64,000 nucleotides of DNA from Cinnamomum chago (Eukaryota > Streptophyta > Magnoliopsida > Laurales > Lauraceae). Location of the stretch: contig CP142451.1 of assembly GCA_038049695.1 (NCBI GenBank), positions 43,349,001 through 43,413,000 on the forward strand. Reading direction: 5' to 3'. A program made the translations under genes and the position numbers. This document shows positions 3,379 through 46,446 of the stretch, in pieces. The notes below the pieces were generated by a model. It did not search any database. It was not told where the DNA came from and saw nothing but the letters and a program-made list of their open reading frames with translations. The first letter of the stretch is position 1. Every line of letters begins with the position of its first letter.

Positions 3379-3644
3379 TGAAAGTCCGCTATGGATCCTA
3401 ACCCTAGAGGGGGGGTGAATAGGGTGAGCTACAACTAATGACTAATTATGACCAATTTTAATTTCTTAAACTAAACTAGTCACAAGTGGTGATTATAAGA
3501 AAAAATGCGGAAGCTCAAATAAACAATCACCACAAAAGCATGCACCACAACACCAAGGTTTATAGTGGTTCGGCCTCAATGCCTACATCCACTACCGGCT
3601 TGTGTCTCCATCACCCCACCGGATTCCACTACTTATGCTTTTTA

Positions 3645-3800
3645 CTAGGCTAAGCAATAACCCTTACAATATGCTTTTCTTAGGCTTAGCAATAACCTTA
3701 CAATGTTGTTTTTCTAAGGCTCAACAACAACCTCTCAATTGTGCTTTTCTAGGCTTAGCATTAACCTTTACAAATTGCTTTTCAAAGGCTAAGCAATAAC
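3645..3800 (-). repeat. LTR minisatellite (about 35-bp units)
   Basis: Four to five imperfect units built on 'aggctaagcaataaccttacaa' plus a variable 'tgcttttct' spacer. The same array recurs in every LTR of this family (9457-9612, 27579-27740, 33453-33614, 39370-39500, 45000-45160 and, inverted, 2330-2465). It lies downstream of the TATA box in LTR orientation, hence in the R-U5 transcribed part. Confidence 0.85.
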
Positions 3801-4484
3801 CTTACACAAAGATGATTTCTCATAGAAAGTGTCTTCACAAAAGATCACTCTAAGAGATTACAATTTAAGCACAATGGAATTTGCCTCTTAAATAGGCTAA
3901 TAGGAAAATGAAATTCCAATTACAAACATACACTAAAATAAACTAAAGTGTGTGCACAAAGTGTATGTATGAGTTTCTTCAATCAAATTTAACAATGAAG
4001 CTTTTAAATGAATGCATGATGCATTTTAAAATCAAGGTTTATAAAATGATGATTGAAGAGAAAACTAATCACATAAAGAATTCAAACAACTTTGATGAAA
4101 TGAATTAAACAAGTTGTATGAATGTTAAAATCTAAGAAAGCATGTGATTAGGATAAGAGAGTTTGCAAACTAATCTAATTTACCAAGGATGATTTAGAGT
4201 TTGCAACACATCTCTTTAAAAGCTAGAAATCATGCAAATATGCAAATACAAAGATTTAATGATGCATTGATTCTACTTTTAATGGAAATCAAAATGATAA
4301 GTAAGGTCTACCTTTTTAAATCTCAAACATTTGATTTCCAAATGGCCTTCTAGCCTTTCCAACTTCTTCCCCTTTGTTTGGCTCCAAAATGCTCTCAAGA
4401 GCTCATTTGTTCAACTTTTGAGAAGTTGGAAATGAATGGACTTTATAGGCAAAAAACAGTCCACGGGCTAGTTGTCTCGGTCGA

Positions 4485-4614
4485 CCTAGAGGTCTCGGTC
4501 GACCGGGAAGGCATAACGGTCGGATTTTTGACCGTTGGAGGTTTCAGTTCAGAAACTGTAAAAATTACCTCCAGTTGTCTCGGTCGACCGAGACCTGTGT
4601 CTCGGTCGACCGGC
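4485..4614 (-). promoter_or_regulatory. Palindrome array with MSA-like box in element 1 LTR
   Basis: Seen: four ggtcgacc boxes, one a perfect 14-bp palindrome CTCGGTCGACCGAG (4579-4592), plus an inverted AACGGTC/GACCGTT pair (4514-4537). The sequence at 4529-4539 read on the minus strand (TCCAACGGTCA) is an exact match to the MSA consensus YCYAACGGYYA. The array lies directly upstream of the LTR TATA box. A regulatory role is inferred from position only. Confidence 0.6.
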
Positions 4615-5130
4615 AACACTGCCGGGACACCCCATTTTGCAAAAATTCAATTTTTGCCTATTTGAAGGTATATCTATGGGGGACCTTTTGGGCCATTAAA
4701 TCAAGCTTAAATACATGTTTTAGAGATATTCTAAGATGTTTAAAAACAAGGGAAACACAAAGCCTAAAATGATTTGAAACTTTAAACCAAAGGCTAGCTT
4801 GATTTGAAAAACTCCTTTTTCCAAAAACAATGCATACAAAAGTGATTCTTAAAGAGATGAATGTATGCAAAGCTTAAACCTAAATTCTAACATGATTTTC
4901 CAAATGCAATGCACAATGAATTAGGTTTTCAAAAAGAGTTTGGGTTCTAAAACCAATGCATCCAAGTATAAAACCAAAACATGCATAAAACCAAAGCTTT
5001 TCCAAATCTTAAAAGCTATGCATGTATAAAACTAGATTTCAAGGGTTTTCTAAACCAATGCTAGTGTGTGAATACAAATGATGCCAATATGCAATGCATC
5101 CATCAAATTGCAAAAACAAAAGACCTAACA

Positions 5131-5720
5131 ATCTCCCCCTTTGCAATTTGATGGCAACTTACTCATCATTGAAAAAACACACTTTGTCTTTAGCTCCCCC
5201 TAAGCTTGACAAGTCTTGAAATCTTCTTGGATGCTCCTTCTCTTAGCTTGGGCTCTTTGGCTCTTTACTTCACTCTTCTTGATGCTTGGAGCTTGATCAT
5301 CCTTCAAGCTTTCTCTTCTCATCTTCCTCTTTATGGCCAAGCATCTTCTTTAGCTCCAAGCTTTCTTTCTTCTATTAGCTCTCCCCCTTTGACCATGCCT
5401 CTTTCTCCCTTTGGCAAGGTATGTATTCTCTCCCCTTGTAGAAGATCATACACAACTCTCCCCTTTGGAAGCTTGGACTTTCTCTTCACCCTTTTGAGAA
5501 CATGCATAATTTCTCCCCCTTTGCCATTAAATTGCAAAGGTACCTACACACATGAAACAAAGAAAATACCTTTAGTAGCACCTGTTAACAAATGACATCG
5601 AAAATGAAATACATAACAGGCTATCATGTGAGGTAGTAGTCTCTAAGGGTTCAAAGGCAATCCTAGGGTCAATTTGATCACAACTAATACTTCCTATGAA
5701 GGTTTACACTCCCCCTCAAT
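5131..5720 (-). promoter_or_regulatory. Multiple polypurine tracts of element 1
   Basis: Just inside the 3' LTR the minus strand carries repeated purine runs of the type CAAAGGGGGAGA (plus strand: 'atctccccctttg' at 5131, 'agctccccct' near 5192, 'ctctccccctttg' near 5384, 'tctccccctttg' near 5512, 'cactccccct' near 5708). The tract touching the LTR is the probable plus-strand primer. Several polypurine tracts upstream of the 3' LTR is a reported hallmark of Sireviruses. Open frames on both strands here (for example 5206-5595) follow from the low-complexity tracts and are not called as genes. Confidence 0.65.
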
Positions 5721-7535
5721 CCATTCTCTTCTTTTGTCAAACTTTTGACAAAGATTTAACTATTAGGTACAAGAAGAAGATGGTTTAACCAAGTGAGGGT
5801 CAACTTCAAAGAAAGGATTAGATTCATTTAACTATCAAGCTCATATGATCAAATTGCCAAAAGAAAGCAAGGTCTATGGAAAAAGCCATCATGGATATCA
5901 ATTGGAAAGACAAAGAATACCAATTGAGATTTAGGATATGACTATTTAAATCAATCACTCTAAAATGGATTTAAAAATATACCTATTAGGAAAAATCCAA
6001 ATTAGAGCTATCCATGATATGGGGTTTACTCAAACATAGCATCAAATAATCTAACTATGGAAAGCATATGCTATGAAGGTTTTGAAAATCATTTCATTCA
6101 ATCAATAAATATGACTTATTAAAGTGCAAATGAGTGAAATGAATTCCAAGCATGAAGCCAACCTCAACTAATAACCAACCAATATTATTAACACATAAAC
6201 ATGGTGGTCATGAGATATACCTATATGAGCAAAAGAGGTGGCAACATGAGCATTATGATGCTAATGGTGTGTGACATGGAACAATCATATTACTTATCAA
6301 GTTCAATCCAAAGCACACAAGGTCTATCACATACACAAGATAAGATATCAATTGGATAGAAATCAATGGAAAGTTATACCAAATGAAACCAATTGAATAT
6401 GATAACATGATTAAAAGCAAGGATGTGACAAACCCAAAAATCCATCAAGCATCATAAATGCATATTCATCACTTTTAAAGATATGACTAATGAGCATAGT
6501 GATGAACAAGGTAAATTGCAATGCAAAAATATATTACTTTGTAAAGCATGCAATTTCCAAAGTGACTAAATCATATGAATTCAACACTAAGATATCCATC
6601 AAACAAGAGATATAACTATGAAATACAAGGAATGGATTTCAAAGAGGTTCATATGATCAAGAACACTACTATGAAGTTGAAACATGTATAAAGATGACTC
6701 CAAGAGAATCTACATGAATCAACATCATAACCATCCATAAAGATATGACTAGAGAGCATAGAGGATGGATTTAGGTTCTAGTATGGTTTCTACAAATGAT
6801 ACTAAGATCACAACCATACATGGAACCAATTGTCATTTGCATATAAAAAGAATGTAAACACATAAGCTAAAGATGCAAACAACATACATTTCCATTTCTA
6901 AAGATAATGAAACCAAAAGAAAAAGGAAATGAGAATAATGGAACATGCTTAGATGAATATAACTAATGAGATTAAAAAGCATTTCCATTCAAAACAATCT
7001 TCAAATCATTTTGAAAAACAAAATCCAACAATGAGCATAAAGGAATGATTTTGAAGATCAATTATCAACATTGTATTTGAAAAGATATAACTTCATTAAA
7101 ACACATACAAGTTGATTTTTCAAAACACTGTTCTCCATATAAAATTATAACTTATAAATCCATGGAAAACTTGAATTGATTCAAATCATTTGTTCAAATA
7201 ATCTTACTATGACATAAACACAAATGATTCAACAATTGATCATGAAGAGTCTAGCTATGAAAGCTTTTGAAATCACAATCAATTGATCATGTAAAGAAAT
7301 GCAATGCAAGACATATGTGTGCAAAAGACAAATCAAACATGATGAAATTATAATCAAATGATTTTGAAAACCATGACATGTAACTTAGAATGGTGCATGA
7401 AACCAAAATCAAATGATCATAAAGAAGCAATGCATTTTAAGAAATCTAACTAAAAGAAACAAAATGCAAATGCACTCATGACCAACAAAGTGATTTAACT
7501 AATAAAGAGTAGGTTGGTCAATGAGGTTCAAGACC
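5721..7535 (-). other. Non-coding internal region of element 1
   Basis: About 1.8 kb of A-rich DNA with no long open frame on either strand. It is full of recurring short words ('atatgatc', 'tataact', 'aacatga') and is recognisably conserved in order and sequence with 29720-31501 (element 2) and 41420-43206 (element 3). It sits where an autonomous relative would carry pol. Confidence 0.75.
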
Positions 7536-9074
7536 CTAAGGTTTGTCTAGGTATAAAACTTTGGGAATCCACCTAAGGTCTTGGGAGGGTTGAACTTTGA
7601 GGTCAATTTTGAAATCCTCACCAACTATAGGAGATTTGACTTGATAAATTTTCAATTTAAACTTATCACCAAGATATTTAGATTTTACTAAATTTGGCTT
7701 AGAATGGTGATTAGTCTTTTGAGGTTGGTGATTATTCTTCATAGGGGATTGTTTTCTATTCTTCTTATTTTCTCCCTTTCTTTGACTTTTGAAATTTAGA
7801 TTTAACTTTGTAATTTTCTTCAAAAGTTCTTTCATGTTTTGACTTAAGGGAGGTAGGTTGAGAAGCTTTTTGTTAATAGATTCTTTTAAACTTGGTTTGA
7901 CTTGTTTAACCTTTTTAGAATCTATTTTTGGAGACTCCATTTTAAATGGTTTAACTTGTTTAGTCTTTTTGGAGTCTTCCTTTGTTTTTAGTGTCTTACC
8001 CTTCAAGTTTGATTTTACTTTCTTTGGTTCAAAGATGGGTTTAGACACATAGCTTCTTTTCCTTAGTTTGCACTCAAACCTAAAGTGTCCTTCATTGCCA
8101 CAATAATCACATTTTGATTTGGGCAAGGGAGGAAGAGTGCTAGAGAAAGAGGACTCACCTTTCACAAAAGTGTTGGTGAATTTAGGGTCATGAGACATAT
8201 TCCTATTGAATCCAATACCCGTCCTATCTCCAAGAGGTTTACCCATTTTAAATAATTTTTCAAGTCTATCTTCACTTTGGGTAACCTTGCACTCATACTT
8301 TTGTTTATAGTTTTCAAGTTGAGTGACTTTGGTTATAAGGATTGAATTTTCATGTTTGACTTTTGAAAGTTCATTTTCAATTTCCTTATAATTGCTTAGC
8401 TCTTCATTGGCAAGTTGTAATTTATGTTTAAGGTCATTAACAACATTAGTTCCAAGCTCTTGAGTTTTTAACTTACTTTTGATCAACTTGGCTTCTAAGT
8501 TGTTAAAGTCTTTATCTTGTCTTTTAATTGTATCTCTTAGGTTTAAATTTTCATTTTTAAGTTCATCACAATTTATCTTAATCTCATTTAATTCATCTTG
8601 AGCATTAGATAAATTTTCCTTAGAGATAGTCAATTTAGATTCAAGATTGTTAAAGTCTTTATCTTGCCTTTGTAATTGATCTCTTTGTTTTAGATTTCCC
8701 TTATTGACATTATCATAATCCATCTTTAATTCTTTTAGTTCATCTTGAATGTTAGATAGATTATTTAAAGAGATCATGAACTTAGATTCTACACAATTTA
8801 TTAATTCTTCTTTTTCTCTAAGTTCATCTTTTGAAGAAGCTAATTCTTTGGTTAGATTCATAGATTCTTCTCTTAAGCTCTTGTTTCTTTTATCAAGCTT
8901 TGTAGATAATGTATATAATTCATTATAGGCTTGTTGAAGCTCATCTTCATCATACTCAATTTCTTCCTCTTTTGAGTCAAATTGATATTCATTTAATTGA
9001 TGGTTTGAATCTCTAATAGAAGGAAGAGTGAGGGGTCTAGAAGAATCTACAAGATCTAGGATAGTGGAGTCCAT
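7536..9074 (-). CDS. Gag-like coiled-coil CCHC protein (element 1)
   Basis: An uninterrupted ORF of about 512 residues; the first ATG is at 9072-9074 (an in-frame TTG lies five codons upstream). Domains: acidic N-terminus; coiled coil over residues about 40-250 with ELxKE/NLRDQ-type heptads; a conserved block DRTGIGFNRNMSHDPKFT; a CCHC zinc knuckle CDYCGNEGHFRFEC (about residues 322-335); a Lys/Ser-rich basic tail; and a terminal LRWIPKVLYLDKP. This matches the C-terminal half of Sirevirus-type copia Gag, which is known for coiled coils. The N-terminal capsid-like (UBN2) part and any protease are not there. Likely role (inference): RNA binding through the knuckle and co-assembly with a partner element's Gag through the coil. 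It begins about 100 nt after the 5' LTR. Confidence 0.85.
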   Translation of the reverse strand: MDSTILDLVDSSRPLTLPSIRDSNHQLNEYQFDSKEEEIEYDEDELQQAYNELYTLSTKLDKRNKSLREESMNLTKELASSKDELREKEELINCVESKFMISLNNLSNIQDELKELKMDYDNVNKGNLKQRDQLQRQDKDFNNLESKLTISKENLSNAQDELNEIKINCDELKNENLNLRDTIKRQDKDFNNLEAKLIKSKLKTQELGTNVVNDLKHKLQLANEELSNYKEIENELSKVKHENSILITKVTQLENYKQKYECKVTQSEDRLEKLFKMGKPLGDRTGIGFNRNMSHDPKFTNTFVKGESSFSSTLPPLPKSKCDYCGNEGHFRFECKLRKRSYVSKPIFEPKKVKSNLKGKTLKTKEDSKKTKQVKPFKMESPKIDSKKVKQVKPSLKESINKKLLNLPPLSQNMKELLKKITKLNLNFKSQRKGENKKNRKQSPMKNNHQPQKTNHHSKPNLVKSKYLGDKFKLKIYQVKSPIVGEDFKIDLKVQPSQDLRWIPKVLYLDKP

Positions 9075-9176
9075 TCTAATGATTTTCAAGTAAGGACAAC
9101 TCTAGGGTTTTAACTCTAGGTTTTTACACCTAATCAAGAGTTCCAAACACTTGATCCTAAGGGATTAGAGCACTTG

Positions 9177-9188
9177 GCTCTGATACCA
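9177..9188 (-). promoter_or_regulatory. Primer-binding site, tRNA-iMet (element 1)
   Basis: The minus strand reads TGGTATCAGAGC two bases from the 5' LTR. This is the standard plant initiator-Met tRNA primer site and fixes the element's orientation. Confidence 0.95.
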
Positions 9189-9190
9189 AT

Positions 9191-10942
9191 TGAAAGTCCG
9201 CTATGGATCCTAACCCTAGAGGGGGGGTGAATAGGGTGAGCTACAACTAATGACTAATTATGACCAATTTTAATTTCTTAAACTAAACTAGTCACAAGTG
9301 GTGATTATAAGAAAAAATGCGGAAGCTCAAATAAACAATCACCACAAAAGCATGCACCACAACACCAAGGTTTATAGTGGTTCGGCCTCAATGCCTACAT
9401 CCACTACCGGCTTGTGTCTCCAACACCCCACCGGATTCCACTACTTATGCTTTTTACTAGGCTAAGCAATAACCCTTACAATATGCTTTTCTTAGGCTTA
9501 GCAATAACCTTACAATGTTGTTTTTCTAAGGCTCAACAACAACCTCTCAATTGTGCTTTTCTAGGCTTAGCATTAACCTTTACAAATTGCTTTTCAAAGG
9601 CTAAGCAATAACCTTACACAAAGATGATTTCTCAAAGAAAGTGTCTTCACAAAAGATCACTCTAAGAGATTACAATTTAAGCACAATGGAATTTGCCTCT
9701 TAAATAGGCTAATAGGAAAATGAAATTCCAATTACAAACATACACTAAAATAAACTAAAGTGTGTGCACAAAGTGTATGTATGAGTTTCTTCAATCAAAT
9801 TTAACAATGAAGCTTTTAAATGAATGCATGATGCATTTTAAAATCAAGGTTTATAAAATGATGATTGAAGAGAAAACTAATCACATAAAGAATTCAAACA
9901 ACTTTGATGAAATGAATTAAACAAGTTGTATGAATGTTAAAATCTAAGAAAGCATGTGATTAGGATAAGAGAGTTTGCAAACTAATCTAATTTACCAAGG
10001 ATGATTTAGAGTTTGCAACACATCTCTTTAAAAGCTAGAAATCATGCAAATATGCAAATACAAAGATTTAATGATGCATTGATTCTACTTTTAATGGAAA
10101 TCAAAATGATAAGTAAGGTCTACCTTTTTAAATCTCAAACATTTGATTTCCAAATGGCCTTCTAGCCTTTCCAACTTCTTCCCCTTTGTTTGGCTCCAAA
10201 ATGCTCTCAAGAGCTCATTTGTTCAACTTTTGAGAAGTTGGAAATGAATGGACTTTATAGGCAAAAAACAGTCCACGGGCTAGTTGTCTCGGTCGACCTA
10301 GAGGTCTCGGTCGACCGGGAAGGCATAACGGTCGGATTTTTGACCGTTGGAGGTTTCAGTTCAGAAACTGTAAAAATTACCTCCAGTTGTCTCGGTCGAC
10401 CGAGACCTGTGTCTCGGTCGACCGGCAACACTGCCGGGACACCCCATTTTGCAAAAATTCAATTTTTGCCTATTTGAAGGTATATCTATGGGGGACCTTT
10501 TGGGCCATTAAATCAAGCTTAAATACATGTTTTAGAGATATTCTAAGATGTTTAAAAACAAGGGAAACACAAAGCCTAAAATGATTTGAAACTTTAAACC
10601 AAAGGCTAGCTTGATTTGAAAAACTCCTTTTTCCAAAAACAATGCATACAAAAGTGATTCTTAAAGAGATGAATGTATGCAAAGCTTAAACCTAAATTCT
10701 AACATGATTTTCCAAATGCAATGCACAATGAATTAGGTTTTCAAAAAGAGTTTGGGTTCTAAAACCAATGCATCCAAGTATAAAACCAAAACATGCATAA
10801 AACCAAAGCTTTTCCAAATCTTAAAAGCTATGCATGTATAAAACTAGATTTCAAGGGTTTTCTAAACCAATGCTAGTGTGTGAATACAAATGATGCCAAT
10901 ATGCAATGCATCCATCAAATTGCAAAAACAAAAGACCTAACA
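9191..10942 (-). repeat. Element 1 5' LTR with promoter
   Basis: Right copy of the LTR, the transcribing one for the minus-strand element. The TATA box is the reverse complement of ctttata at 10253-10259. Upstream of it (higher coordinates) lies the palindrome array to about 10425, including CTCGGTCGACCGAG at 10391-10404. Downstream, the R-U5 part holds the minisatellite. It ends next to the primer-binding site. Confidence 0.93.
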
Positions 10943-10947
10943 TTATG

Positions 10948-15009: not shown

Positions 15010-15014
15010 GTTTC

Positions 15015-16095: not shown

Positions 16096-16103
16096 ATCAG
16101 TAC

Positions 16104-27312: not shown

Positions 27313-29077
27313 TGAAAGTCCACGAGGATCCTAACCCTAGAGGGGGGGGTGAATAGGGTGAGCTACAACTAATGACTAATTAAGACCAATTTTAATTTCT
27401 TAAACTAAACTAGTCACAAGTGGTGATTATAAGAAAAAATGCGGAAGCTCAAATAAACAATCACCACAAAAGCATGCACCACAACACAATATTTATAGTG
27501 GTTCGGCCAACGTGCCTACATCCACTACCGGCTTGTGTCTCCAACACCCCACCGGATTCCACTAAGTATGCTTTTTACTAGGCTAAGCAATAACCCTTAC
27601 AATGTGCTTTTCTAGGCTAAGCAATAACCTTACAAGATGCTTTTCAAAGGCTAAGCAATAACCTTACAAGATGCTTTTCAAAGGCTAAGCAATAACCTTA
27701 CAAGTTGCTTTTCTTAGGCTTAGCAATAACCTTTACAAATATAGTTTTCTCAAAGAAAGTGTCTTAACAAAAGAACACTCTAAGAGATTACAATTTAAGC
27801 TCAATGGAATTGCCTCTTGAATAGGCTAATATGAAAGTGAAAACTAAACTCACACAAACACTCTATGAATGCAAAGATGTATGCTTATGAGGTGTGTGTG
27901 TGTGATGACTTCAATCAAGTTTAAAAAGAAAGCTTAATCAAATATATGCTTAAAGCATTTGAAAGTTTAAGACACACAAAAGTTTTGATTGAAGTTTGAT
28001 GCAAATCACATGAATAATAAACAACTTGTTAATGACATGAAATTCAAAGAATCACAAGTTGTATGAAAAATAAAGTTTAAGAAAGCATGTGATTTGATAA
28101 GAGTGATTGCAAACTAATCTAATTTACCAAGAAAGATATTGAGCTTGCAAATCAACTCTTTAAGGACTTGAAATCATGCATAAATGAAAATACAAAGGAT
28201 TTGAACATGCATGAATTTCATTTGTATGGAAATCAAAATAACTTAGAAGATGTACCTTTTAAAAACTCATGAGTTTGATTTCCAAATTGCCCTCTAGCCT
28301 TTCCAACTTCTTCCCCTTTCTTTGGCTCCAAAATGCTCTCAAAAGTTCATAGTTCAAGCCTTGAAAAAGGTTGGAAATGAATGGACTTTATAGCCAAAAA
28401 GTTGCCAACGGCTAGTTCTCGGTCGACCTAGACACAGGTCTCGGTCGACCGAGAAAGCACAACGGTCATATTTCTGACCGTTGGCCTGAAACAGTTCAAA
28501 AACTGTCCATTTGCCCTGCAGTGTTCTCGGTCGACCGAGACACAGGGCTCGGTCGACCGACGACACTGTCGGGCGAGTCCCTGGGCCAAAATTCCAACTT
28601 TTTCCATTTTCAAAGTTTTTCTTTGGTGGAACTTTTGGCCACTAAATCAAGCTTAAATAACATGTTTTAAGGTATTCTAAGATGTTTAAAAACATGAGAA
28701 ACACAAAGCCTAAAATGATTCACAAGATTAAAACCAAGGGCTAGCTTGATTTGAATACAACTCTTTTCAAATGAAATTGCATACAAAATGATTCTTTTTG
28801 TGAAGAATGTATGCAAGACTTAAACCTAAATACACAAGATGATTTTCCAAATGTAGTGCACAAGGAAATAGGTTTTCAAAAGAGTTTTGGGTTCTAAAAC
28901 CAATGCATCCAAGTTTAAAACCAAAACATGCATAAAACAAAAGCTTTTCCAAATCTTAAAAGCTATGCATGGGTAAAACTAGATTTCAAGATATTTTAAA
29001 TCAATGCATGTGTGTGAATTCAAATGATGCCAATATGCAAATGCATCCACCAAATTGCAAAAACAAAATACCTAACA
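27313..29077 (-). repeat. Element 2 3' LTR
   Basis: Left LTR. It carries the minisatellite (27579-27740) and the palindrome array 28416-28561, with CTCGGTCGACCGAG at 28440-28453 and 28526-28539 and a one-base variant at 28548-28561. The TATA box on the minus strand lies beside 28386-28393. Confidence 0.95.
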
Positions 29078-31501: not shown

Positions 31502-33070
31502 CTAAGGTTTGTCTAGGTAAATAACTTTAGGAATCCACCTAAGGTCTTGGGAGGGTTGAACTTTGAGATCTATCTTGGAATTCTCACCAACTAAAGGAGA
31601 TTTAACTTGATAAATTTTCAATTTGAACTTATCACCATGATATTTAGATTTTACTAAATTTGGCTTAAAATGGTGATTAGTCTTTTGATGTTGGTGAGTT
31701 TTCTTCTTAGGGGATTGTTTCACTTTTCTTTTCTTCTTATTTTCTCCCTTTCTTTGACTTTTGAAATTTAGATTTAACTTAGTAATTTTCTTCAAAAGTT
31801 CTTTCATGTTTTGACTTAAGGGAGGTAGGTTAAGAAGCTTTTTGTTAATAGATTCTTTTAAACTTGATTTGACTTGTTTAACCTTTTTAGAATCTATTTT
31901 TGGAGACTCCTTGTTAATTGGTTTAACTTGTTTAAGCTTTATGGAGTCTTCCTTTGTTTTTAGTGTCTTACCCTTCAAGTTTGATTTTACTTTCTTGAGT
32001 TCAAAGATGGGTTTAGACACATAGCTTCTTTTCCTTAGTTTGCACTCAAATGTAAAATGCCCTTCAATGCCACAATAATTACATTTTGATTTGGGCAAGG
32101 GAGGAAGAGTGCTAGAGAAAGAGGACTCACCTTTCACAAAAGTGTTGGTGAATTTAGGGTCATGAGACATATTCCTATTGAATCCAATACCCGTCCTATC
32201 TCCATGAGGTTTACCCATTTTAAATAATTTTTCAAGTCTATCTTCACTTTGGGTAACCTTGCACTCATACTTTTGTTTATACTCTTCAAGTTGAGTGACT
32301 TGGGTTTTAAGGGTTGAATTTTTATTTTTAACTTTTGTTAGTTCATTTTCAATTCCCTTAAAATTGTTTAGCTCTTCATAGGCAAGTTTTAACTTAGAAT
32401 TAAGCTCATTAACAACATTTGATCCAAGTTCTAAAGTTTTTAAATTACTTTGAGCATTAGACAAATTTTCATTGGAAATTGTCAACTTGGATTTTAAAAA
32501 GTTAATGTTTTCATCTTGTCTTTTAATTGTATCTCTTAGGTTCAAATTTTCAATTTTAAGCTCATCACAATTTATCTTAATCTCATTTAATTCATCTTGA
32601 GCATTAGATAAATTTTCCTTAGAGATAGTCAATTTAGATTCAAGATTGTTAGAGTCTTTACCTTGCCTTTGTAATTGATCTCTTAGCTTTAAATTTTCCT
32701 TATTGACATTTTCATAACCCATCTTTAATTCTTTTAGTTCATCTTGAATGTTGGATAGGTTATTTAAAGAGATCATGAACTTAGACTCTACACAATTTAT
32801 TACTTCTTCTTTCTCTCTAAGTTCATCTTTTGAAGAAGCTAATTCTTTGCTTAGATTTTTAGATTCTTCTCTTAAACTTTTGTTTTTCTTCTCAAGCTTT
32901 AAGGATACTTCATATAATTCTTCAAAGGCTTGTTGAAGATCTTCTTCATTATATTCTTCTTCTTCATTTAGTTTACATTGAGATTCTTTTAATTGAATGT
33001 TTGAATCTCTAATAGATGGAAGAATGGTAAGTCTAGGAGAATCTACAAAATCTAGCATAGTGGAGTCCAT
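31502..33070 (-). CDS. Gag-like coiled-coil CCHC protein (element 2)
   Basis: Intact ORF of about 522 residues from the first ATG at 33068-33070 (an in-frame TTG is five codons upstream). It has the same plan as in element 1: MDSTMLDFVDSPRL start, long coiled coil, DRTGIGFNRNMSHDPKFT block, CCHC knuckle CNYCGIEGHFTFEC (about residues 330-343), Lys-rich tail and LRWIPKVIYLDKP end. The coiled coil contains internally repeated NLSNAQ/ELNEIKINCDELK modules, one more than in element 3, so coil length varies by module. No capsid-like domain or enzyme is present. Likely an RNA-binding accessory Gag that acts with an autonomous relative's Gag-Pol (inference). Confidence 0.87.
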   Translation of the reverse strand: MDSTMLDFVDSPRLTILPSIRDSNIQLKESQCKLNEEEEYNEEDLQQAFEELYEVSLKLEKKNKSLREESKNLSKELASSKDELREKEEVINCVESKFMISLNNLSNIQDELKELKMGYENVNKENLKLRDQLQRQGKDSNNLESKLTISKENLSNAQDELNEIKINCDELKIENLNLRDTIKRQDENINFLKSKLTISNENLSNAQSNLKTLELGSNVVNELNSKLKLAYEELNNFKGIENELTKVKNKNSTLKTQVTQLEEYKQKYECKVTQSEDRLEKLFKMGKPHGDRTGIGFNRNMSHDPKFTNTFVKGESSFSSTLPPLPKSKCNYCGIEGHFTFECKLRKRSYVSKPIFELKKVKSNLKGKTLKTKEDSIKLKQVKPINKESPKIDSKKVKQVKSSLKESINKKLLNLPPLSQNMKELLKKITKLNLNFKSQRKGENKKKRKVKQSPKKKTHQHQKTNHHFKPNLVKSKYHGDKFKLKIYQVKSPLVGENSKIDLKVQPSQDLRWIPKVIYLDKP

Positions 33071-33173: not shown

Positions 33174-33184
33174 CTCTGATACCA
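33174..33184 (-). promoter_or_regulatory. Primer-binding site, tRNA-iMet (element 2)
   Basis: The minus strand reads TGGTATCAGAG, two bases from the 5' LTR. It matches the initiator-Met tRNA 3' end over 11 bases. Confidence 0.93.
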
Positions 33185-33186
33185 AT

Positions 33187-34951
33187 TGAAAGTCCACGAG
33201 GATCCTAACCCTAGAGGGGGGGGTGAATAGGGTGAGCTACAACTAATGACTAATTAAGACCAATTTTAATTTCTTAAACTAAACTAGTCACAAGTGGTGA
33301 TTATAAGAAAAAATGCGGAAGCTCAAATAAACAATCACCACAAAAGCATGCACCACAACACAATATTTATAGTGGTTCGGCCAACGTGCCTACATCCACT
33401 ACCGGCTTGTGTCTCCAACACCCCACCGGATTCCACTAAGTATGCTTTTTACTAGGCTAAGCAATAACCCTTACAATGTGCTTTTCTAGGCTAAGCAATA
33501 ACCTTACAAGATGCTTTTCAAAGGCTAAGCAATAACCTTACAAGATGCTTTTCAAAGGCTAAGCAATAACCTTACAAGTTGCTTTTCTTAGGCTTAGCAA
33601 TAACCTTTACAAATATAGTTTTCTCAAAGAAAGTGTCTTAACAAAAGAACACTCTAAGAGATTACAATTTAAGCTCAATGGAATTGCCTCTTGAATAGGC
33701 TAATATGAAAGTGAAAACTAAACTCACACAAACACTCTATGAATGCAAAGATGTATGCTTATGAGGTGTGTGTGTGTGATGACTTCAATCAAGTTTAAAA
33801 AGAAAGCTTAATCAAATATATGCTTAAAGCATTTGAAAGTTTAAGACACACAAAAGTTTTGATTGAAGTTTGATGCAAATCACATGAATAATAAACAACT
33901 TGTTAATGACATGAAATTCAAAGAATCACAAGTTGTATGAAAAATAAAGTTTAAGAAAGCATGTGATTTGATAAGAGTGATTGCAAACTAATCTAATTTA
34001 CCAAGAAAGATATTGAGCTTGCAAATCAACTCTTTAAGGACTTGAAATCATGCATAAATGAAAATACAAAGGATTTGAACATGCATGAATTTCATTTGTA
34101 TGGAAATCAAAATAACTTAGAAGATGTACCTTTTAAAAACTCATGAGTTTGATTTCCAAATTGCCCTCTAGCCTTTCCAACTTCTTCCCCTTTCTTTGGC
34201 TCCAAAATGCTCTCAAAAGTTCATAGTTCAAGCCTTGAAAAAGGTTGGAAATGAATGGACTTTATAGCCAAAAAGTTGCCAACGGCTAGTTCTCGGTCGA
34301 CCTAGACACAGGTCTCGGTCGACCGAGAAAGCACAACGGTCATATTTCTGACCGTTGGCCTGAAACAGTTCAAAAACTGTCCATTTGCCCTGCAGTGTTC
34401 TCGGTCGACCGAGACACAGGGCTCGGTCGACCGACGACACTGTCGGGCGAGTCCCTGGGCCAAAATTCCAACTTTTTCCATTTTCAAAGTTTTTCTTTGG
34501 TGGAACTTTTGGCCACTAAATCAAGCTTAAATAACATGTTTTAAGGTATTCTAAGATGTTTAAAAACATGAGAAACACAAAGCCTAAAATGATTCACAAG
34601 ATTAAAACCAAGGGCTAGCTTGATTTGAATACAACTCTTTTCAAATGAAATTGCATACAAAATGATTCTTTTTGTGAAGAATGTATGCAAGACTTAAACC
34701 TAAATACACAAGATGATTTTCCAAATGTAGTGCACAAGGAAATAGGTTTTCAAAAGAGTTTTGGGTTCTAAAACCAATGCATCCAAGTTTAAAACCAAAA
34801 CATGCATAAAACAAAAGCTTTTCCAAATCTTAAAAGCTATGCATGGGTAAAACTAGATTTCAAGATATTTTAAATCAATGCATGTGTGTGAATTCAAATG
34901 ATGCCAATATGCAAATGCATCCACCAAATTGCAAAAACAAAATACCTAACA
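33187..34951 (-). repeat. Element 2 5' LTR with promoter
   Basis: Right, transcribing LTR. The TATA box is the reverse complement of ctttata at 34260-34266, with the CGGTCGACCG palindrome array immediately upstream (34290-34437) and an AACGGTC/GACCGTT inverted pair between the palindromes. It appears identical to the left LTR. Confidence 0.95.
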
Positions 34952-34956
34952 CCATT

Positions 34957-39108: not shown

Positions 39109-40787
39109 TGTAAGTCCTGGGGATCCGAACCCTAGAGGGGGGGTGAATAGGGTGAGCTTCATTTATGACCAATTTAGACCAATTTTAATTTCTTAACAAA
39201 AACTAGTCACAGTGATGATATTAATCAAACAAGATGCGGAAGCTAATAAATGAATCACCACAAGCATACACCACAACACAAAGGTTTATAGTGGTTCGGC
39301 CTCAATGCCTACGTCCACTACCAGCTTGTGATCCAATCACCCCACCGGATTTCCACTATTTATGCTTTTTACTAGGCTAAGCAATAACCCTTACAATGTT
39401 GTTTTTCTAGGCTAAACAACAACCTCTCAATGTGCTTTTCTAGGCTAAGCAATAACCTTTACAAAATGCTTTTCTTAGGCTAAGCAATAACCTTTACAAA
39501 TGAATGATTTCTCTAAGAAGGTGTCTTCACAAAAGAACACTCCAAGAGATACAATTTAAGCACAATTGAATTGCCTCTACATAGGCTAATATGAAAGTGT
39601 AATTCAAATTACAAACATACACTAAATGAGCTAAAGTGTGTGCACAAGTGTATGAATGCTTTTCTTCAATCAATTTCAACAATGAAGCTCTTAAATGAAT
39701 GCATGATGCATTTTAAAATCAAAGCTTATAAAATGATGATTGAAGAGAAAACTAATCACATAAAAGATTCAAACAACTTTGAAGAAATGAACTAAACAAG
39801 TTGTATGAATATTAAAATCTAAGAGCATGTGAATTAGTCAAGAGAGTTTGCAAACCATTCTTAATATTCCAAAGATGGTAATGAGTTTGCAAAACAACTC
39901 TTTAAAAACTAGAAATCATGCATAAAAGAAAATACAAAGATTTAACCATGCATTGATTCTAATTTTAATGGAAATCAAAATGATAAGTAAGATGTACCTT
40001 TTTAAAACTCAAGCATTTGATTTCCAAATAGCCCTCTAGCCTTTCCAACTTCTTCCCCTTTCTTTGGCTCCAAAATGGTCTCAAAAGTCCATGTATCAAG
40101 CCATTTGAAAGTTGGAAAATGAATGGACTTTATACAAGAAAACAGTCCAACGGCTAGTCCTCGGTCGACCTGGAAACAGGTCTCGGTCGACCGGGATCAC
40201 ACAACGGTCGGAAATATGACCGTTGGGGCTCCAGGGGCCCTTTCTGCCTGCAGTGTTCCCAGTCGACCGGCCACACTGGCAGCAGACCCCCTGGGACAAA
40301 AATTCCCATAAATTGCAAATTTGAAGGTGTTTCTTTGTGGGGATTTTTGGGCCACTAAACCAAGCTTGGAAACATGTTTTAAATCAAACGAAAATGTTTA
40401 AAATCATGAAACACAAAAAGCCTAAAATAATTTGGAAGATTTAAAACATAGGCTAGCTTGATTTCTAAAAACTCTTTTCACATAAAAATGCATACAAAAA
40501 AGATTCTGAAAGTGAAGAATGTATGCAAGGCACAAACCTAAATTCTCAATATGATTTCTCAAAAGTAAAGCACAAAGAATTAGGATTTCAAAAGAGTTTG
40601 AATTCTAAAATCAATGCATCCAAGTATAAAAACAAAACATGCATAAAACAAAACTTTTTCAAATCTTAAAAGCAATGCATGTATAAAACCAGATTTCAAG
40701 GTTTTCTAAAACAATGCAAGTGTGAAAATTCAAATGATGCTAAAGTGAAAATGCATCCATCAAATTGCAAAAACAAAATTCCTAACA
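39109..40787 (-). repeat. Element 3 3' LTR
   Basis: Left LTR with the shorter minisatellite (about 39370-39500). Palindromic boxes lie at 40160-40174, 40182-40195 and 40259-40270. Two exact MSA-type motifs are present: TCCAACGGCTA on the plus strand at 40146-40156 and, on the minus strand, CCCAACGGTCA at 40217-40227. The TATA box is the reverse complement of ctttata at 40128-40134. Confidence 0.9.
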
Positions 40788-41420
40788 ATCTCCCCCTTTG
40801 CAATTTGATGGCAACTTACTCATCATTGAAATTACACACTTAGTCTTCAGCTCCCCCTAAGCTGGGCAAGTCTTGAAATCTTCTTGGATGCTCCTCCTCT
40901 TAGCTTGGGCTCTTGGGCTCTTTTCTTCAATCTTCTTGATGCTTGGAGCTTGATCATTCTTCAAGCTTTCTTTTCATCTTCCTCTCTATGGCCAAGCATC
41001 TTCTTTAGCTCCAAGCTTTCTTTCTTCTATTAGCTCTCCCCCTTTGACCATGCCTCTCTCTCCCTTTGGCAAGATATGCATTCTCTCCCCTTGTAGAAGA
41101 TCATACACAACTCTCCCCTTAGGAAGCTTGGACAATCTCTTCACCCTTTTGAGAACTTGAATGCTCTCTCCCCCTTTGAAGAGTAGGAGATCTTTAAGTA
41201 CTTGAACTCTCTCTCCCCCTTTGCCATTAAATTGCAAAGGTACCTACACACATGAGACAAGGAGAATACCTTTAGTAGCACCTGATAATAAAAGAAATAA
41301 AAAATGATAATCATAACAGGTGATCATGTATGGTAGTAGTCTCTAAGGGTCTAAAGGCAATCCAAGGGTAAATTTGATCAAAACTAATACTTCCCATGAA
41401 GGTTTACACTCCCCCTTAAT
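40788..41420 (-). promoter_or_regulatory. Multiple polypurine tracts of element 3
   Basis: Repeated ctccccctttg-type blocks (40790, 40853, 41036, 41170, 41213 and 41410, approximate) give purine tracts on the element strand, the first touching the 3' LTR. The layout agrees with elements 1 and 2. Confidence 0.65.
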
Positions 41421-43206
41421 TCATTCTCTTCTTTTGTCAAACTTTTGACAAGGTATAACTATTTGGTTCAAGAAGTAGATGGTTTAACCAAATGAGGGTC
41501 AACTTCAAGGAAATGATTAGATTCATTTAACTATAAAGCTCAATATGATCAAATTACCAAAAGAAAGCAAGGTCAATGAGAAAAGCAATCATGGATACCA
41601 ATTGGAAAAACAAAGAATACCAATTGAGATTTAAAGATAAGTCTATTAAACACAATCACTCTAAAATGGATTTAAAAATATAACTATTAAGAAAAATCCA
41701 AATTAGAACTATCCATGATGAGATGGGGTTTACTAAACATAGCATTAAATAATCTAACTATGGAAAGCATATGCTATGAAGGTTTTGAAAATCATTTCAT
41801 TCAATCAATAAATATGACTATTAATGAGCAAGATGAGTGAAATGAAATTCAAACATGAAGCCAACCTCAACTAATAACCAACCAATATTATGAACACATA
41901 AACATGGTGGTCATGAGATGTACCAATAAGAGCAAGAGAGGTGGCAAACATGAAAATTATGATGCTAATGGAGTGAGACATGGAACAAATATATAACTAT
42001 CAAGTTCAAACCAATGTACACATGGTCTATCACATTCACAAGAAATCAAATCAATCGAAAATTTTACCAATTGAATTTGACAACATGAAAAAGAGCAAGG
42101 ATGTGACAAACACAAAATTCCATCAAGCATCATAAATGGATATTCATCACTATTAAAGATATGACTATAGAGCATAGTGATGAACAAGGCAAATTGCAAT
42201 GCAAAAGGATATGACTAGGTAAAGCATGCAATTTCCAAAGTGTCAAAATCATATGAATTCAACATCTAAGATATCCATCAACCATATAGAAATTCAATGA
42301 ATGGATTTCAAAGAGTTTCATATGATCAAGAACACTACTATGAAGTTGAAACATGTATAAGGATGACATCACTTAGAGAATTCACATGAATCAACATCAT
42401 AACCATCCAAAAAGAAATGACTAGAGTGCATAGAGGATGGATTTGGGTTCTAGTATGGTTTCTACATATATAACTAAGATCACAACCATACATGGAACCA
42501 ATAGTCATTTGCATATAAAAAGAATGAAAACAAATAAGCAAGAATGCAAACAACAAACATTTCCATTTCTAAGATAATGAAACCAAAAGAAAAGGAAATG
42601 AGAACATGGAACATGCTTAGATGAATATAACTAATGATGTTATAGAGCATTTCCATTCAAACAATCTTCAAATCATTTTGAAAAACAAAATCCAACAATG
42701 AGCATAAAAAGAATGATTTTGAAGATCAATTTTCAACATTGTATTTTAAAAGATATAACTTAAAAGAAACACATACAAGTTGATTTTTCAAAACAATGAT
42801 TTTCCATATAAAAATATAACTTAGAAGTCTATGGAAAAACTTGAATTGATTCAAATCATTTGTTCAAATAATCTAACTATGACATCTACACAAATGATTC
42901 AACAACAATTGATCATGAATAAATTAGCTATGAAAGCTTTTAAAATCACAATCAATTAATCATGTAAAGAAATGCAATGCAAGACATATGTGTGCAAAAA
43001 GCAAATCAAACATGATGTAATTATAATCAAAAGATTTTGAAAACCATGATATGTAACAAGAATGGTGCATGAAAACAAAATCAATTGATCATAAAGAAAC
43101 AATGCATTTTAAGAAATGTAACTATATAGAAACAAAATGCAAATGCAACATGACCAACAAAGTGATTTAACTATAAAGAATAGGTTGGTCAAGAGGGTTC
43201 AAGGCC
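41421..43206 (-). other. Non-coding internal region of element 3
   Basis: A-rich and collinear with the matching regions of elements 1 and 2. No supported coding region. Confidence 0.7.
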
Positions 43207-44631
43207 TTAAGGTTTGTCTAAGTAAATAACTTTAGGATTCCACCTAAGGTCTTGAGAGGGTTGAACTTTGAGGTCTATTTTGAACTTCTCACCAACTAAA
43301 GGAGATTTGACTTGATAAATTTTCAATTTAAACTTATCACCATGATATTTAGATTTGATTAAATTTAGCTTAGATTGGTGATTAGTCTTTTGATGTTGGT
43401 GAGTTTGTTTCTTTGGGGATTGATTCACTTTTCTTTTCTTCTTATTTTCTCCCTTTACTTGACTTTTGAATTTTAAATTTAACTTTGTTACTTTATTCAA
43501 AAGTTCTTTCATGGGTTTATATAAGGGAGATAGGTTGAGAAGCTTTTTGTTTATAGATTCTTTTAAACTTGGTTTGACTTGTTTAACCTTTTTAGAATCT
43601 ATCTTTGGAGACTCCATTTTAATAGATTTAACTTGTTTAGTCTTTTTGAAGTCTTTCTTGATTTTTAGTGTCTTACCCTTCATAGATTTAGATTCTACCT
43701 TTTTGGGTTCAAGGAGGGGTTTAGACACATGGCTTCTTCTTAGTTTGCACTCAAATTTGAAATGTCTTACTTTACCACAATAATGACATTTAGTTTTGGA
43801 CATTGGAGAAAGAGTGCTAGAGAAAGAGGACTCACCTTTCACAAAAGTGTTGGTGAATTTAGGGTCATATGACATATTCCTATTAAATCCAAGACCCGTC
43901 CTATCTCCATGAGATTTACCCAATTTAAATAATTTTTCAAGTCTTTCTTCACTTTGGGTAAACTTGCACTCATACTTTTGTTTATATCCTTCAAGTTGAG
44001 TGACTTTGGTTATAAGGATTGAATTTTCATGTTTAACTTTTAAAAGATCATTTTCAATATCCTTATAATTACTTAGCTCTTCATTGGCAAGTTTTAATTT
44101 AAGTTTTAGTTCATTAACAACATTAGATCCAAGTTCTGAGTTTTTTAACTTACTTTTAATCAACTTGGATTCTAAATTGATAAAGTCTTTATCTTGCCTT
44201 TTTATTTGATCTCTTAGATTTAAATTTTCCTTATTGACATTATCATAACCCATCTTTAATTCTTTTAGTTCATCTTGAATGTTAGATAGGTTATTTAAAG
44301 AGATCATGAACTTAGATTCAACACAATTTATTACTTCTTCTTTCTCTCTAAGTTCATCTTTTGAAGAGACTAATTCTTTGTTTAGATTCATAGATTCTTC
44401 TCTTAAACTTTTGTTTTTCTTCTCAAGCTTTAAGGATACTTCATATAATTCATTATAGGCTTGTTGAAGATCATCTTCATCATAATCAATTTCTTCTTCT
44501 TTTAACTCATATTGAGATTCATTTAATTGAGGGTTTGAATCTCCAATAGAAGGAAGAATGAGGGGTCTAGGAGAATCTACACAAGAATCTAAACTATCTA
44601 TCATAGTGGAATCCATCCTAATGATTTTCAT
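43207..44631 (-). CDS. Gag-like coiled-coil CCHC protein (element 3)
   Basis: Intact ORF of 474 residues. Here the first codon of MKIIRMDSTM is a true ATG (44629-44631), where elements 1 and 2 have TTG. Order: short N-terminus, coiled coil (about residues 45-220, shorter than in elements 1 and 2 by about one module), DRTGLGFNRNMSYDPKFT block, CCHC knuckle CHYCGKVRHFKFEC (residues 282-295), Lys-rich tail and LRWNPKVIYLDKP end. Staying open in the oldest copy, with the knuckle cysteines and histidine kept, argues that the protein matters to the element. No enzyme domains. Confidence 0.85.
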   Translation of the reverse strand: MKIIRMDSTMIDSLDSCVDSPRPLILPSIGDSNPQLNESQYELKEEEIDYDEDDLQQAYNELYEVSLKLEKKNKSLREESMNLNKELVSSKDELREKEEVINCVESKFMISLNNLSNIQDELKELKMGYDNVNKENLNLRDQIKRQDKDFINLESKLIKSKLKNSELGSNVVNELKLKLKLANEELSNYKDIENDLLKVKHENSILITKVTQLEGYKQKYECKFTQSEERLEKLFKLGKSHGDRTGLGFNRNMSYDPKFTNTFVKGESSFSSTLSPMSKTKCHYCGKVRHFKFECKLRRSHVSKPLLEPKKVESKSMKGKTLKIKKDFKKTKQVKSIKMESPKIDSKKVKQVKPSLKESINKKLLNLSPLYKPMKELLNKVTKLNLKFKSQVKGENKKKRKVNQSPKKQTHQHQKTNHQSKLNLIKSKYHGDKFKLKIYQVKSPLVGEKFKIDLKVQPSQDLRWNPKVIYLDKP

Positions 44632-44718
44632 GTAAGGACAACTCTAGGGTTTTGACTCTAGGTTTTTACACCTAATCAAGAGTTCCAAACACTTGATCCT
44701 AAAGTATAGAGCACTTGT

Positions 44719-44729
44719 CTCTGATACCA
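44719..44729 (-). promoter_or_regulatory. Primer-binding site, tRNA-iMet (element 3)
   Basis: The minus strand reads TGGTATCAGAG, two bases from the 5' LTR. Confidence 0.92.
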
Positions 44730-44731
44730 CT

Positions 44732-46446
44732 TCTAAGTCCTGGGGATCCGAACCCTAGAGGGGGGGGTGAATAGGGTGAGCTTCATTTATGACCAATTTA
44801 GACCAATTTTAATTTCTTAACAAAAACTAGTCACAGTGATGATATTAATCAAACAAGATGCGGAAGCTAATAAATGAATCACCACAAGCATACACCACAA
44901 CACAAAGGTTTATAGTGGTTCGGCCTCAATGCCTACGTCCACTACCAGCTTGTGATCCAATCACCCCACCGGATTTCCACTATTTATGCTTTTTACTAGG
45001 CTAAGCAATAACCCTTACAATGTTGTTTTTCTAGGCTAAACAACAACCTCTCAATGTGCTTTTCTAGGCTAAGCAATAACCTTTACAAAATGATTTTCTT
45101 AGGCTAAGCAATAACCTTTACAAGATGTTTTTCTTATGCTAAGCAATAACCTTTACAAATGAATGATTTCTCTAAGAAGGTGTCTTCACAAAAGAACACT
45201 CCAAGAGATACAATTTAAGCACAATTGAATTGCCTCTACATAGGCTAATATGAAAGTGTAATTCAAATTACAAACATACACTAAATGAGCTAAAGTGTGT
45301 GCACAAGTGTATGAATGCTTTTCTTCAATCAATTTCAACAATGAAGCTCTTAAATGAATGCATGATGCATTTTAAAATCAAAGCTTATAAAATGATGATT
45401 GAAGAGAAAACTAATCACATAAAAGATTCAAACAACTTTGAAGAAATGAACTAAACAAGTTGTATGAATATTAAAATCTAAGAGCATGTGAATTAGTCAA
45501 GAGAGTTTGCAAACCATTCATAATATTCCAAAGATGGTAATGAGTTTGCAAAACAACTCTTTAAAAACTAGAAATCATGCATAAAAGAAAATACAAAGAT
45601 TTAACCATGCATTGATTCTAATTTTAATGGAAATCAAAATGATAAGTAAGATGTACCTTTTTAAAACTCAAGCATTTGATTTCCAAATAGCCCTCTAGCC
45701 TTTCCAACTTCTTCCCCTTTCTTTGGCTCCAAAATGGTCTCAAAAGTTCATGTATCAAGCCATTTGAAAGTTGGAAAATGAATGGACTTTATACAAGAAA
45801 ACAGTCCAACGGCTAGTCCTCGGTCGACCTGGAAACAGGTCTCGGTCGACCGGGATCACACAACGGTCGGAAATATGACCGTTGGGGCTCCAGGGGCCCT
45901 TTCTGCCTGCAGTGTTCCCAGTCGACCGGCCACACTGGCAGCAGACCCCCTGGGACAAAAATTCCCATAAATTGTAAATTTGAAGGTGTTTCTTTGTGGG
46001 GATTTTTGGGCCACTAAACCAAGCTTGGAAACATGTTTTAAATCAAACGAAGATGTTTAAAATCATGAAACACAAAAAGCCTAAAATAATTTGGAAGATT
46101 TAAAACATAGGCTAGCTTGATTTCTAAAAACTCTTTTCACATAAAAATGCATACAAAAAAGATTCTGAAAGTGAAGAATGTATGCAAGGCACAAACCTAA
46201 ATTCTCAATATGATTTCTCAAAAGTAAAGCACAGAGAATTAGGATTTCAAAAGAGTTTGAATTCTAAAATCAATGCATCCAAGTATAAAAACAAAACATG
46301 CATAAAACAAAATTTTTTCAAATCTTAAAAGCAATGCATGTATAAAACCAGATTTCAAGGTTTTCTAAAACAATGCAAGTATGAAAATTCAAATGATGCT
46401 AAAGTGAAAATGCATCCATCAAATTGCAAATACAAAATTTCTAACA
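44732..46446 (-). repeat. Element 3 5' LTR with promoter
   Basis: Right, transcribing LTR. The TATA box is the reverse complement of ctttata at 45787-45793, with the palindrome array and the MSA-type motifs just upstream (45805-45930). The minisatellite has one more unit than in the left LTR. Confidence 0.9.

What the first reader, a model, noticed from the sequence alone, without database searches (positions are those of the whole stretch)
3379..46446. Three whole copies of a pol-less LTR family that keeps an intact coiled-coil CCHC ORF
Elements 1, 2 and 3 each have matched LTRs, a 5-bp target duplication, a tRNA-iMet primer site and polypurine tracts, yet encode only one protein of 474-522 residues. 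That protein corresponds to the C-terminal half of a Sirevirus-type Gag (coiled coil, CCHC, basic tail), without capsid-like domain or enzymes. Most non-autonomous families (LARD, TRIM) carry no intact ORF. Keeping this one open in copies of three different ages suggests it is needed in cis or in trans, for instance to bind the element's RNA and recruit a helper Gag through the coil.
Basis: partly seen in the sequence, partly recalled or inferred. Interest (0 to 1): 0.85.

Follow-up and report, generated by a model that had tools for sequence, protein, structure and literature searches.

The report
Enzyme-less jumping genes keeping Gag tail
A numerous family of plant retrotransposons has lost its enzymes and the shell-forming part of its coat protein, yet keeps the RNA-binding rear part of that protein under natural selection, which suggests that it makes its own adaptor for hitching a ride on other elements.

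Summary
Three complete LTR elements (minus strand; TSDs CATAA, AATGG, CCAGT) each carry one ORF of 474-522 aa and no pol. The assembly (unnamed, 1.06 Gb) has 2,937 places with their leader. Of 52 distinct copies read, 49 keep the ORF open. Selection acts on the protein: vN/vS 87/153 = 0.57; in one set of 23 copies 0.58 against 1.11 in their LTRs. A Sirevirus-type gag-pol element of the same genome shows what was kept: coil, second zinc knuckle and tail of Gag; capsid domain and first knuckle are gone. New here: a sibling family with 78-90% identical LTRs but no ORF in the part read (1,998 leader places) has the gag-pol elements' leader motif; 0 of 52 ORF-bearing copies have it. Copies are mosaics; linkage disequilibrium decays within 400 bp. 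Best reading: a self-encoded packaging adaptor for helper particles, partly cis-acting. Selection is shown; the adaptor role is inferred. Pol-less families with a selected Gag are known (Athila), as are single-ORF TR-GAG elements, so this is a new variant. No autonomous partner with matching LTRs was found.

The parts
9191..10942 (-). E1 5' LTR; contains 3 CGGTCGACCG boxes and a polyC integrase-signal-like stretch
9177..9188 (-). E1 primer binding site TGGTATCAGAGC
   Evidence: tRNA identity recalled
9075..9190 (-). E1 leader (primer site included) with the family's own motif GATCAAGTGTTTGGAACTCTTG (52 of 52 distinct copies) and no helper-type motif (0 of 52)
7536..9074 (-). E1 ORF, 512 aa: coil (helices 43-136 and 142-259 predicted), CCHC at residue 322, basic tail
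5131..7535 (-). E1 non-coding linker with 5 AGGGGGAG octamers; terminal one at 5133-5140 next to the 3' LTR
3379..5130 (-). E1 3' LTR
3374..3378 (-). E1 target site duplication CATAA (other copy 10943-10947)
33187..34951 (-). E2 5' LTR
31502..33070 (-). E2 ORF, 522 aa
29078..31501 (-). E2 linker with 7 AGGGGGAG octamers
27313..29077 (-). E2 3' LTR, identical to its 5' LTR; TSD AATGG at 27308-27312 and 34952-34956
44732..46446 (-). E3 5' LTR (its end and primer site are mutated)
43207..44631 (-). E3 ORF, 474 aa (MDST start at 44616)
40788..43206 (-). E3 linker
39109..40787 (-). E3 3' LTR; TSD CCAGT at 39104-39108 and 46447-46451

Best explanation
A high-copy non-autonomous family derived from Sireviruses encodes one protein, the C-terminal module of Gag (long coil, CCHC knuckle, basic tail), without capsid domain or enzymes. 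Shown: the module is maintained by protein-level purifying selection, the cis signals are of Sirevirus type, and the copies are intensive recombinants. Inferred: the knuckle and basic tail bind the element's own RNA, often the RNA being translated (cis preference), and the coil pairs with the homologous coil of a full-length helper Gag, so that the RNA is drawn into helper particles and copied and integrated by helper enzymes. In this reading the protein replaces the helper-type leader motif that gag-pol elements and the ORF-less sibling family have and this family lacks.
For: ORF open in 49 of 52 distinct copies read. dN/dS about 0.53 over 1,225 pairs; vN/vS 87/153 in 39 representatives, and 61/105 = 0.58 against 249/224 = 1.11 for LTR pseudo-codons in the same 23 copies. 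Indels in those 23: 13 of 13 multiples of three in the ORF, 15 of 140 in the LTRs (broken ORFs had been left out, see Tried and rejected). CCHC pattern in 51 of 52. Homology to Gag of gag-pol elements in the same genome, 33-45% identical in the matching pieces and 28% over a longer one; the element read (L071) also has Retrotran_gag_2, a first CCHC, Pol_BBD, gag_pre-integrs and integrase core. Two long helices predicted. Part before the knuckle pI about 5.3, tail about 10.4, in E1-E3. Helper-type leader motif in 10 of 10 readable gag-pol junctions out of 12 examined and in 6 of 6 sibling copies, in 0 of 52 copies of this family. LD decay suggests that different copies are co-packaged, so individual ORFs should decay unless products favour their own RNA (argument of PMC9073684, Discussion read).
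Against: No binding or packaging shown. vN/vS is only 0.57 and does not fall with variant frequency (0.48, 0.75, 0.59, 0.63, 0.55 from singletons to the commonest class), unlike the published Sirevirus pattern (0.15 for common variants). The sibling family has 1,998 leader places and no ORF in the part read, so such RNAs seem to move without encoding the protein. No helper with matching LTRs was identified. Leader folds: z from -1.41 to 0.22 in five leaders, not clearly better than shuffles. AlphaFold confidence is low outside the coil (mean pLDDT 48.7).
Confidence: 0.45

Rival explanations
1. The protein interferes with full-length Gag, as Ty1 p22/p18 does: a C-terminal Gag piece that enters or disturbs helper particles and limits competing elements.
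For: [quoted passage not shown] Sunflower capsid-less Gag isoforms were given both readings, RNA protection and dominant negative (PMC7730604, passages).
Against: A freely diffusing inhibitor gives no clear advantage to the copy that encodes it (inference); p22 arises from an alternative transcript of Ty1 itself, here the module is the only long ORF of a separate family; a family dependent on a helper would harm itself (inference).
Confidence: 0.15
2. The protein serves host-side traffic or RNA protection: the coil region binds LC8-type light chains or shields the RNA, without contact to helper Gag.
For: Sirevirus Gag interacts with the LC8 family (stated in PMC2829016 Background, passage; the original paper was not held). 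The coil is among the regions kept.
Against: A search for TQ[TVS] words gave CKFTQSE, CKVTQSE and twice TLKTQVT, no TQT; other LC8 motif types were not searched. Some contact with a helper's enzymes is still needed (inference).
Confidence: 0.15
3. The ORF is maintained for a non-protein reason or by recent ancestry only (translation as such, RNA stability, too little time to decay).
For: E1-E3 are too young to have decayed. Selection is moderate and flat with frequency.
Against: vN/vS against the LTR control at a mean LTR divergence of 0.18 and a median dS of 0.156 between copies; in-frame indels, with the bias named in Tried and rejected.
Confidence: 0.1
4. These are reduced copies of a family whose members mostly carry full pol.
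For: The linker, LTR signals and ORF look derived from a gag-pol ancestor.
Against: 50 of 50 junction-selected copies have this ORF, or a damaged form of it, behind the leader, and 0 of 52 show the capsid word FDGxxY in the 1.5-1.8 kb read. For 0 of 50 the 95% bound would be about 6%, but the sample is by exact match and contig order, and what follows the ORF was read in full only in E1-E3. All 10 readable gag-pol junctions have other LTR ends.
Confidence: 0.04

Closest known systems
Athila pol-less families of Arabidopsis (PMC2410132; passages read)
   Same: Complete non-autonomous families with LTRs and an intact Gag ORF under purifying selection; recombination between families.
   Different: Gag or Gag plus Env of the Athila lineage (Ty3/gypsy, by recall); here Ty1/copia of Sirevirus type and only the part of Gag behind the capsid domain and first knuckle.
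TR-GAG elements (Chaparro 2015 not held; described in PMC8704663 and PMC5818461, passages read)
   Same: Two LTRs and a single ORF derived from GAG; one was found newly inserted in ddm1 Arabidopsis.
   Different: The ddm1 element has a 562-aa ORF called full-length GAG; here capsid domain and first knuckle are absent, and between-copy selection is measured.
HAL1 (half-L1) of mammals (PMC5753468, passages read)
   Same: Works-like parallel: a non-autonomous element that encodes only ORF1p. That ORF1p is an RNA-binding protein that trimerises through a coiled coil is from the abstract of PMC5940361 in a search listing.
   Different: Non-LTR; complete ORF1p; a protein of another family (recalled).
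Ty1 p22/p18 (PMC4599808 abstract; PMC8458377 search listing)
   Same: A C-terminal Gag product that is made apart from full-length Gag.
   Different: Made by Ty1 itself from an alternative transcript; a restriction factor.
Capsid-less short Gag isoforms of sunflower retrotransposons (PMC7730604, passages read)
   Same: Gag product with RNA-binding motif and without capsid domain.
   Different: Splice isoforms, not the sole ORF of a separate family.
LARD-type elements (definition from PMC5818461 passages)
   Same: The sibling family here (LTRs and an interior without ORF, as far as read) fits.
   Different: The family under study keeps a selected ORF.

Membership tests
Sirevirus (non-coding signature of PMC2829016) | Multiple AGGGGGAG tracts in the linker, clustered near the 3' LTR | tested here: met
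   5 in E1, 7 in E2
Sirevirus (non-coding signature of PMC2829016) | AT/TG attachment site at the terminal tract, flanked by an inverted repeat | tested here: met
   AGGGGGAG-AT-TGTTAGG in E1, E2, E3; arms CCATCAAATTGCAA and TTGCAATTTGATGG seen in E1
Sirevirus (non-coding signature of PMC2829016) | Palindromic CGG-CCG boxes in the LTRs | tested here: met
   CGGTCGACCG, 3 exact copies per LTR in E1 and E2, the box of the published Vitis element; but published elements with boxes have at least 8 copies, and boxes were found in 13 of 21 published elements
Sirevirus (non-coding signature of PMC2829016) | PolyC integrase signal and 5' LTR/PBS junction | tested here: inconclusive
   CACCCCCCCTCTAGGG near the LTR end and CTTTCA-ATTGGTATCAGAGC present in E1; the paper's own consensus was not read (part 3 of its Results not opened)
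Sirevirus (coding) | gag-pol with capsid region, PR, IN, RT, RH | tested here: not met
   single 474-522 aa ORF, no other ORF of 150 aa or more inside E1-E3, no capsid or pol domain in Pfam
TR-GAG | LTRs and one intact ORF encoding a GAG protein, no pol | tested here: inconclusive
   one intact ORF, no pol; the ORF is only the C-terminal part of Gag
TR-GAG | Length limits and domain cut-offs of the original definition | not tested
   Chaparro 2015 not held
LARD / TRIM | No coding regions | tested here: not met
   selected ORF; the sibling family fits as far as read
Ty1 p22-type restriction factor | Trans-dominant inhibition of full-length Gag assembly | not testable with these tools
   needs an assay

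The most novel reading that the evidence does not exclude
An LTR retroelement that has exchanged its packaging signal for a self-encoded packaging adaptor: a capsid-less Gag tail, cis-preferring, that loads its own RNA into another family's particles, while a sister family lacking the protein keeps the helper-type leader motif and needs no adaptor. This would be an LTR counterpart of HAL1 and a natural test of how cis preference can arise in LTR elements.
Probability: 0.27. Interest if true: 0.82.

Novelty: new variant of a known kind. Interest (0 to 1): 0.6.

Why it matters
How LTR retrotransposons favour their own RNA is an open problem: PMC9073684 infers cis-targeting in Sireviruses and says that it is difficult to see how it could be brought about (Discussion read). 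Here selection acts on one Gag module in an element with no other long ORF, which narrows the search to coil, second knuckle and tail. The sibling with similar LTRs and linker but another leader and no ORF seen is a ready-made comparison, and at 2,937 and 1,998 leader places both are large.

Tried and rejected
Rejected: that the three window copies alone prove selection (too young); that they are reduced members of a gag-pol family with the same ends; conserved leader structure; known RNA families (0 Rfam matches in the window); a TQT-type LC8 motif; a fall of vN/vS with frequency (not seen). Led nowhere: finding an autonomous partner with matching LTRs. The fully specified pattern found 20 places; six of these (L093-L098) were read for 1.46-1.52 kb behind the primer site; in the three forward frames no stretch between stops exceeds 68 codons. 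They are the sibling family, not the partner. The rest of its interior, about 1.7-2 kb by array spacing, was not read. They were found by a pattern that holds GGTTACTCC, so that half of the leader motif is by construction; CAACCCGGAGTTGATC is not.

Biases and slips: L010 is E1 itself, so the 53 rows are 52 distinct copies, and the 50 rows hold this copy twice; the 39 representatives and the 23 LTR rows hold it once. 50 of the 52 (all but E2 and E3) were chosen by an exact 31-base LTR-end/primer-site match, in contig order, so they are mostly young and of one LTR type. L024, L025 (neighbours in one array) and L084 were dropped before the selection and indel tests as broken or truncated; a frameshifted ORF could not enter the indel count, so '13 of 13' is partly by construction, limited by the fact that only 3 of 52 were dropped. 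LTR gaps may be inflated by alignment ambiguity. LTR comparisons use 23 of the 39 representatives; the copies hold no LTR and E3 was left out. In one search the E1 and E2 queries were out of frame by a slip; only E3 counted; one search repeats the test with E1 in frame. In one search, two of 12 gag-pol stretches showed neither primer site nor motif, and L102 holds a 51-base stretch 85-89% like this family's LTR end about 550 bases before its own, different, junction (nested insertion suspected).
Full report
What is there. The window is G000:C1:43349001-43413000 of an unnamed 1.06-Gb assembly in 14 contigs; that it is a plant is inferred from its size and elements. On its minus strand lie three complete LTR elements with 1.68-1.77 kb LTRs, 5-bp target duplications, a primer site directly after the 5' LTR, a leader of about 115 bases, one ORF, a non-coding linker of about 2.4 kb with repeated AGGGGGAG tracts (counted in E1 and E2), and a 3' LTR. 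LTR divergence is 0.0011 (E1), 0 (E2) and 0.0066 (E3).

Sirevirus signature. Against the published non-coding hallmarks (PMC2829016; abstract, parts 1 and 2 of its Results and passages read) the elements have the multiple octamers, the AT/TG attachment site, the inverted repeat around the tract/LTR junction, and CGG-CCG palindromes, here CGGTCGACCG as in the published Vitis element, three exact copies per LTR (fewer than the eight or more in published elements with boxes). They lack gag-pol, so they are derivatives, not members in the full sense.

What the protein is. A pattern for a pol motif (recalled) found 207 places. Of the 30 loci cut out, 14 matched the E3 ORF by tblastn, at 33-45% identity. 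One of these elements, read over 5.5 kb (L071), is open for 947 aa to the end of the stretch: Pfam finds Retrotran_gag_2 at 34-214 and a zinc knuckle at 294-309; the coil starts at 389, a second CCHC lies at 545, then the WVPK end of Gag, Pol_BBD, gag_pre-integrs and integrase core. The family's ORF corresponds to coil, second CCHC and tail only. AlphaFold on the three window proteins gives helices 43-136 and 142-259 and little else (mean pLDDT 48.7). In E1-E3 the part before the knuckle is acidic (pI about 5.3) and the tail basic (pI about 10.4).

How many copies, and how intact. The leader pattern with up to 3 mismatches occurs 2,937 times, tandem arrays included. A 31-base LTR-end/primer-site pattern occurs 275 times. 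I read 52 distinct copies: 30 loci (one is E1), 20 fetched, E2 and E3. In 49 the ORF is open, in 25 to its natural end (456-523 aa) and in 24 to the edge of the locus; 3 are broken or truncated, two of these in one array. The CCHC pattern is kept in 51 of 52.

Selection. NG86 over 1,225 pairs gives median dS 0.156, dN 0.083, ratio 0.53. By the counting method of PMC9073684 (section read; the codon sets beyond its examples I derived) 39 representatives give vN 87, vS 153; minor count 3 or more: 54 to 91 (binomial P = 0.003); singletons 24 to 50 (P = 0.003). The ratio does not fall with frequency (0.48, 0.75, 0.59, 0.63, 0.55). As a control the same count on LTR pseudo-codons in three frames gives 249 to 224, while the ORF of the same 23 copies gives 61 to 105. 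ORF indels are in frame 13 of 13 times, LTR indels 15 of 140; broken ORFs had been left out (3 of 52), so this contrast is partly by construction. With about 83 stop-target sites per ORF and roughly 0.08 substitutions per lineage, a neutral lineage would be expected to gain about six stops (my arithmetic). In gag-pol copies the matching Gag region gives 44/64 in all and 14/36 without singletons (13 copies), against 63/103 without singletons here: somewhat stronger constraint there.

Recombination. Distances between 23 copies in LTR and ORF are uncorrelated (r between -0.12 and 0.05 for four half-by-half comparisons), while the two LTR halves correlate (r = 0.47, P = 0.002); the two ORF halves do not (r = 0.06). 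In the ORF of the 39 representatives, r2 falls from 0.28 below 20 bp to 0.03 beyond 400 bp, and 0 of 300 site permutations do as well. So the copies are mosaics; I infer co-packaging of different RNAs and template switching.

A sibling without the ORF. Asking whether this family's LTR end ever sits before the gag-pol type leader (20 places) uncovered a second family. In six copies its LTR matches that of E2 at 78-90% in the main pieces, its interior matches the start of the linker at 77-80% with further matches beyond, and a remnant of 70-90 bases of the ORF's 3' end lies between leader and linker in 4 of 6; no stretch between stops above 68 codons was seen in the 1.46-1.52 kb read behind the primer site. 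Its leader occurs 1,998 times. The motif CAACCCGGAGTTGATC (up to 3 errors) is in 6 of 6 sibling leaders and in 10 of 10 readable gag-pol junctions out of 12 examined, but in 0 of 52 copies of the ORF family, which has its own leader motif in 52 of 52. All 10 gag-pol junctions have LTR ends other than this family's; L071's 3' LTR starts TGTAAG behind the same kind of tract and attachment site.

Mechanism. Shown: protein-level selection, derivation, cis signals, mosaicism. Inferred: RNA binding by knuckle and tail, docking on a helper Gag through the coil, use of helper enzymes, cis preference. The ORF/leader exchange is a correlation over two families and one gag-pol lineage, not an experiment. 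The sibling's success suggests that the protein is dispensable where the helper-type leader is present, or that the sibling uses this family's protein in trans; both can be tested.

Known or new. Non-autonomous LTR families with selected Gag are known in Athila (PMC2410132, passages), and a single-ORF TR-GAG element transposed in ddm1 Arabidopsis (PMC8704663, passages). Capsid-less or C-terminal Gag products are known as Ty1 p22 (PMC4599808, abstract) and as sunflower short isoforms (PMC7730604, passages), but I saw none described as the sole selected product of a high-copy LTR family in the listings of the ten literature searches made. That covers only this open-licence library, and most listed papers were not opened.

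Noticed in passing
G000, places listed: By hand count 50 of the 100 places listed lie in same-strand runs of near-constant spacing (3.9-6.1 kb; for example 8 at 5,829 bases on C5 from 36330133); the sibling family has 9 at exactly 5,208 bases on C1 from 60543853.
   Followed up: partly
window 1848-2048 and 2396-2570 (+): Fragments similar to the LTRs of this family group in opposite orientation (80 and 93%), probably an older partial copy.
   Followed up: no
ORFs of L009-L038 and L072-L091: Linkage disequilibrium decays within 400 bp among copies of one retrotransposon family, as in a recombining population.
   Followed up: yes
L069:5257-5499: Two pieces 76-84% identical to this family's LTR lie behind the gag-pol part of a Sirevirus copy, which suggests a nested insertion; L102 has a similar 51-base LTR-end piece.
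   Followed up: no
L039, L041, L044, L046, L068: Other gag-pol copies with a DSGCSSHMTG motif and three CCHC-like knuckles around their coil.
   Followed up: no
L092:3253-4464 (-): An ORF of 404 aa before the 3' LTR of the L071 gag-pol element, in the place of the Sirevirus envelope-like ORF; Pfam calls it Transposase_32.
   Followed up: partly
window 55666-58930 (+): A copia element of another kind with Retrotran_gag_2, zf-CCHC, rve and RVT_2 in two ORFs of 667 and 409 aa.
   Followed up: no
window 18393-19721 (-) and 50261-51070 (-): A DUF659 protein (hAT-type by recall) and a Retrotrans_gag fragment just below its cut-off.
   Followed up: no
window 9089, 33085, 44631: Five codons before MDST the frame has TTG in E1 and E2 but ATG (MKIIRMDST) in E3 and in a few other copies: alternative starts.
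   Followed up: no
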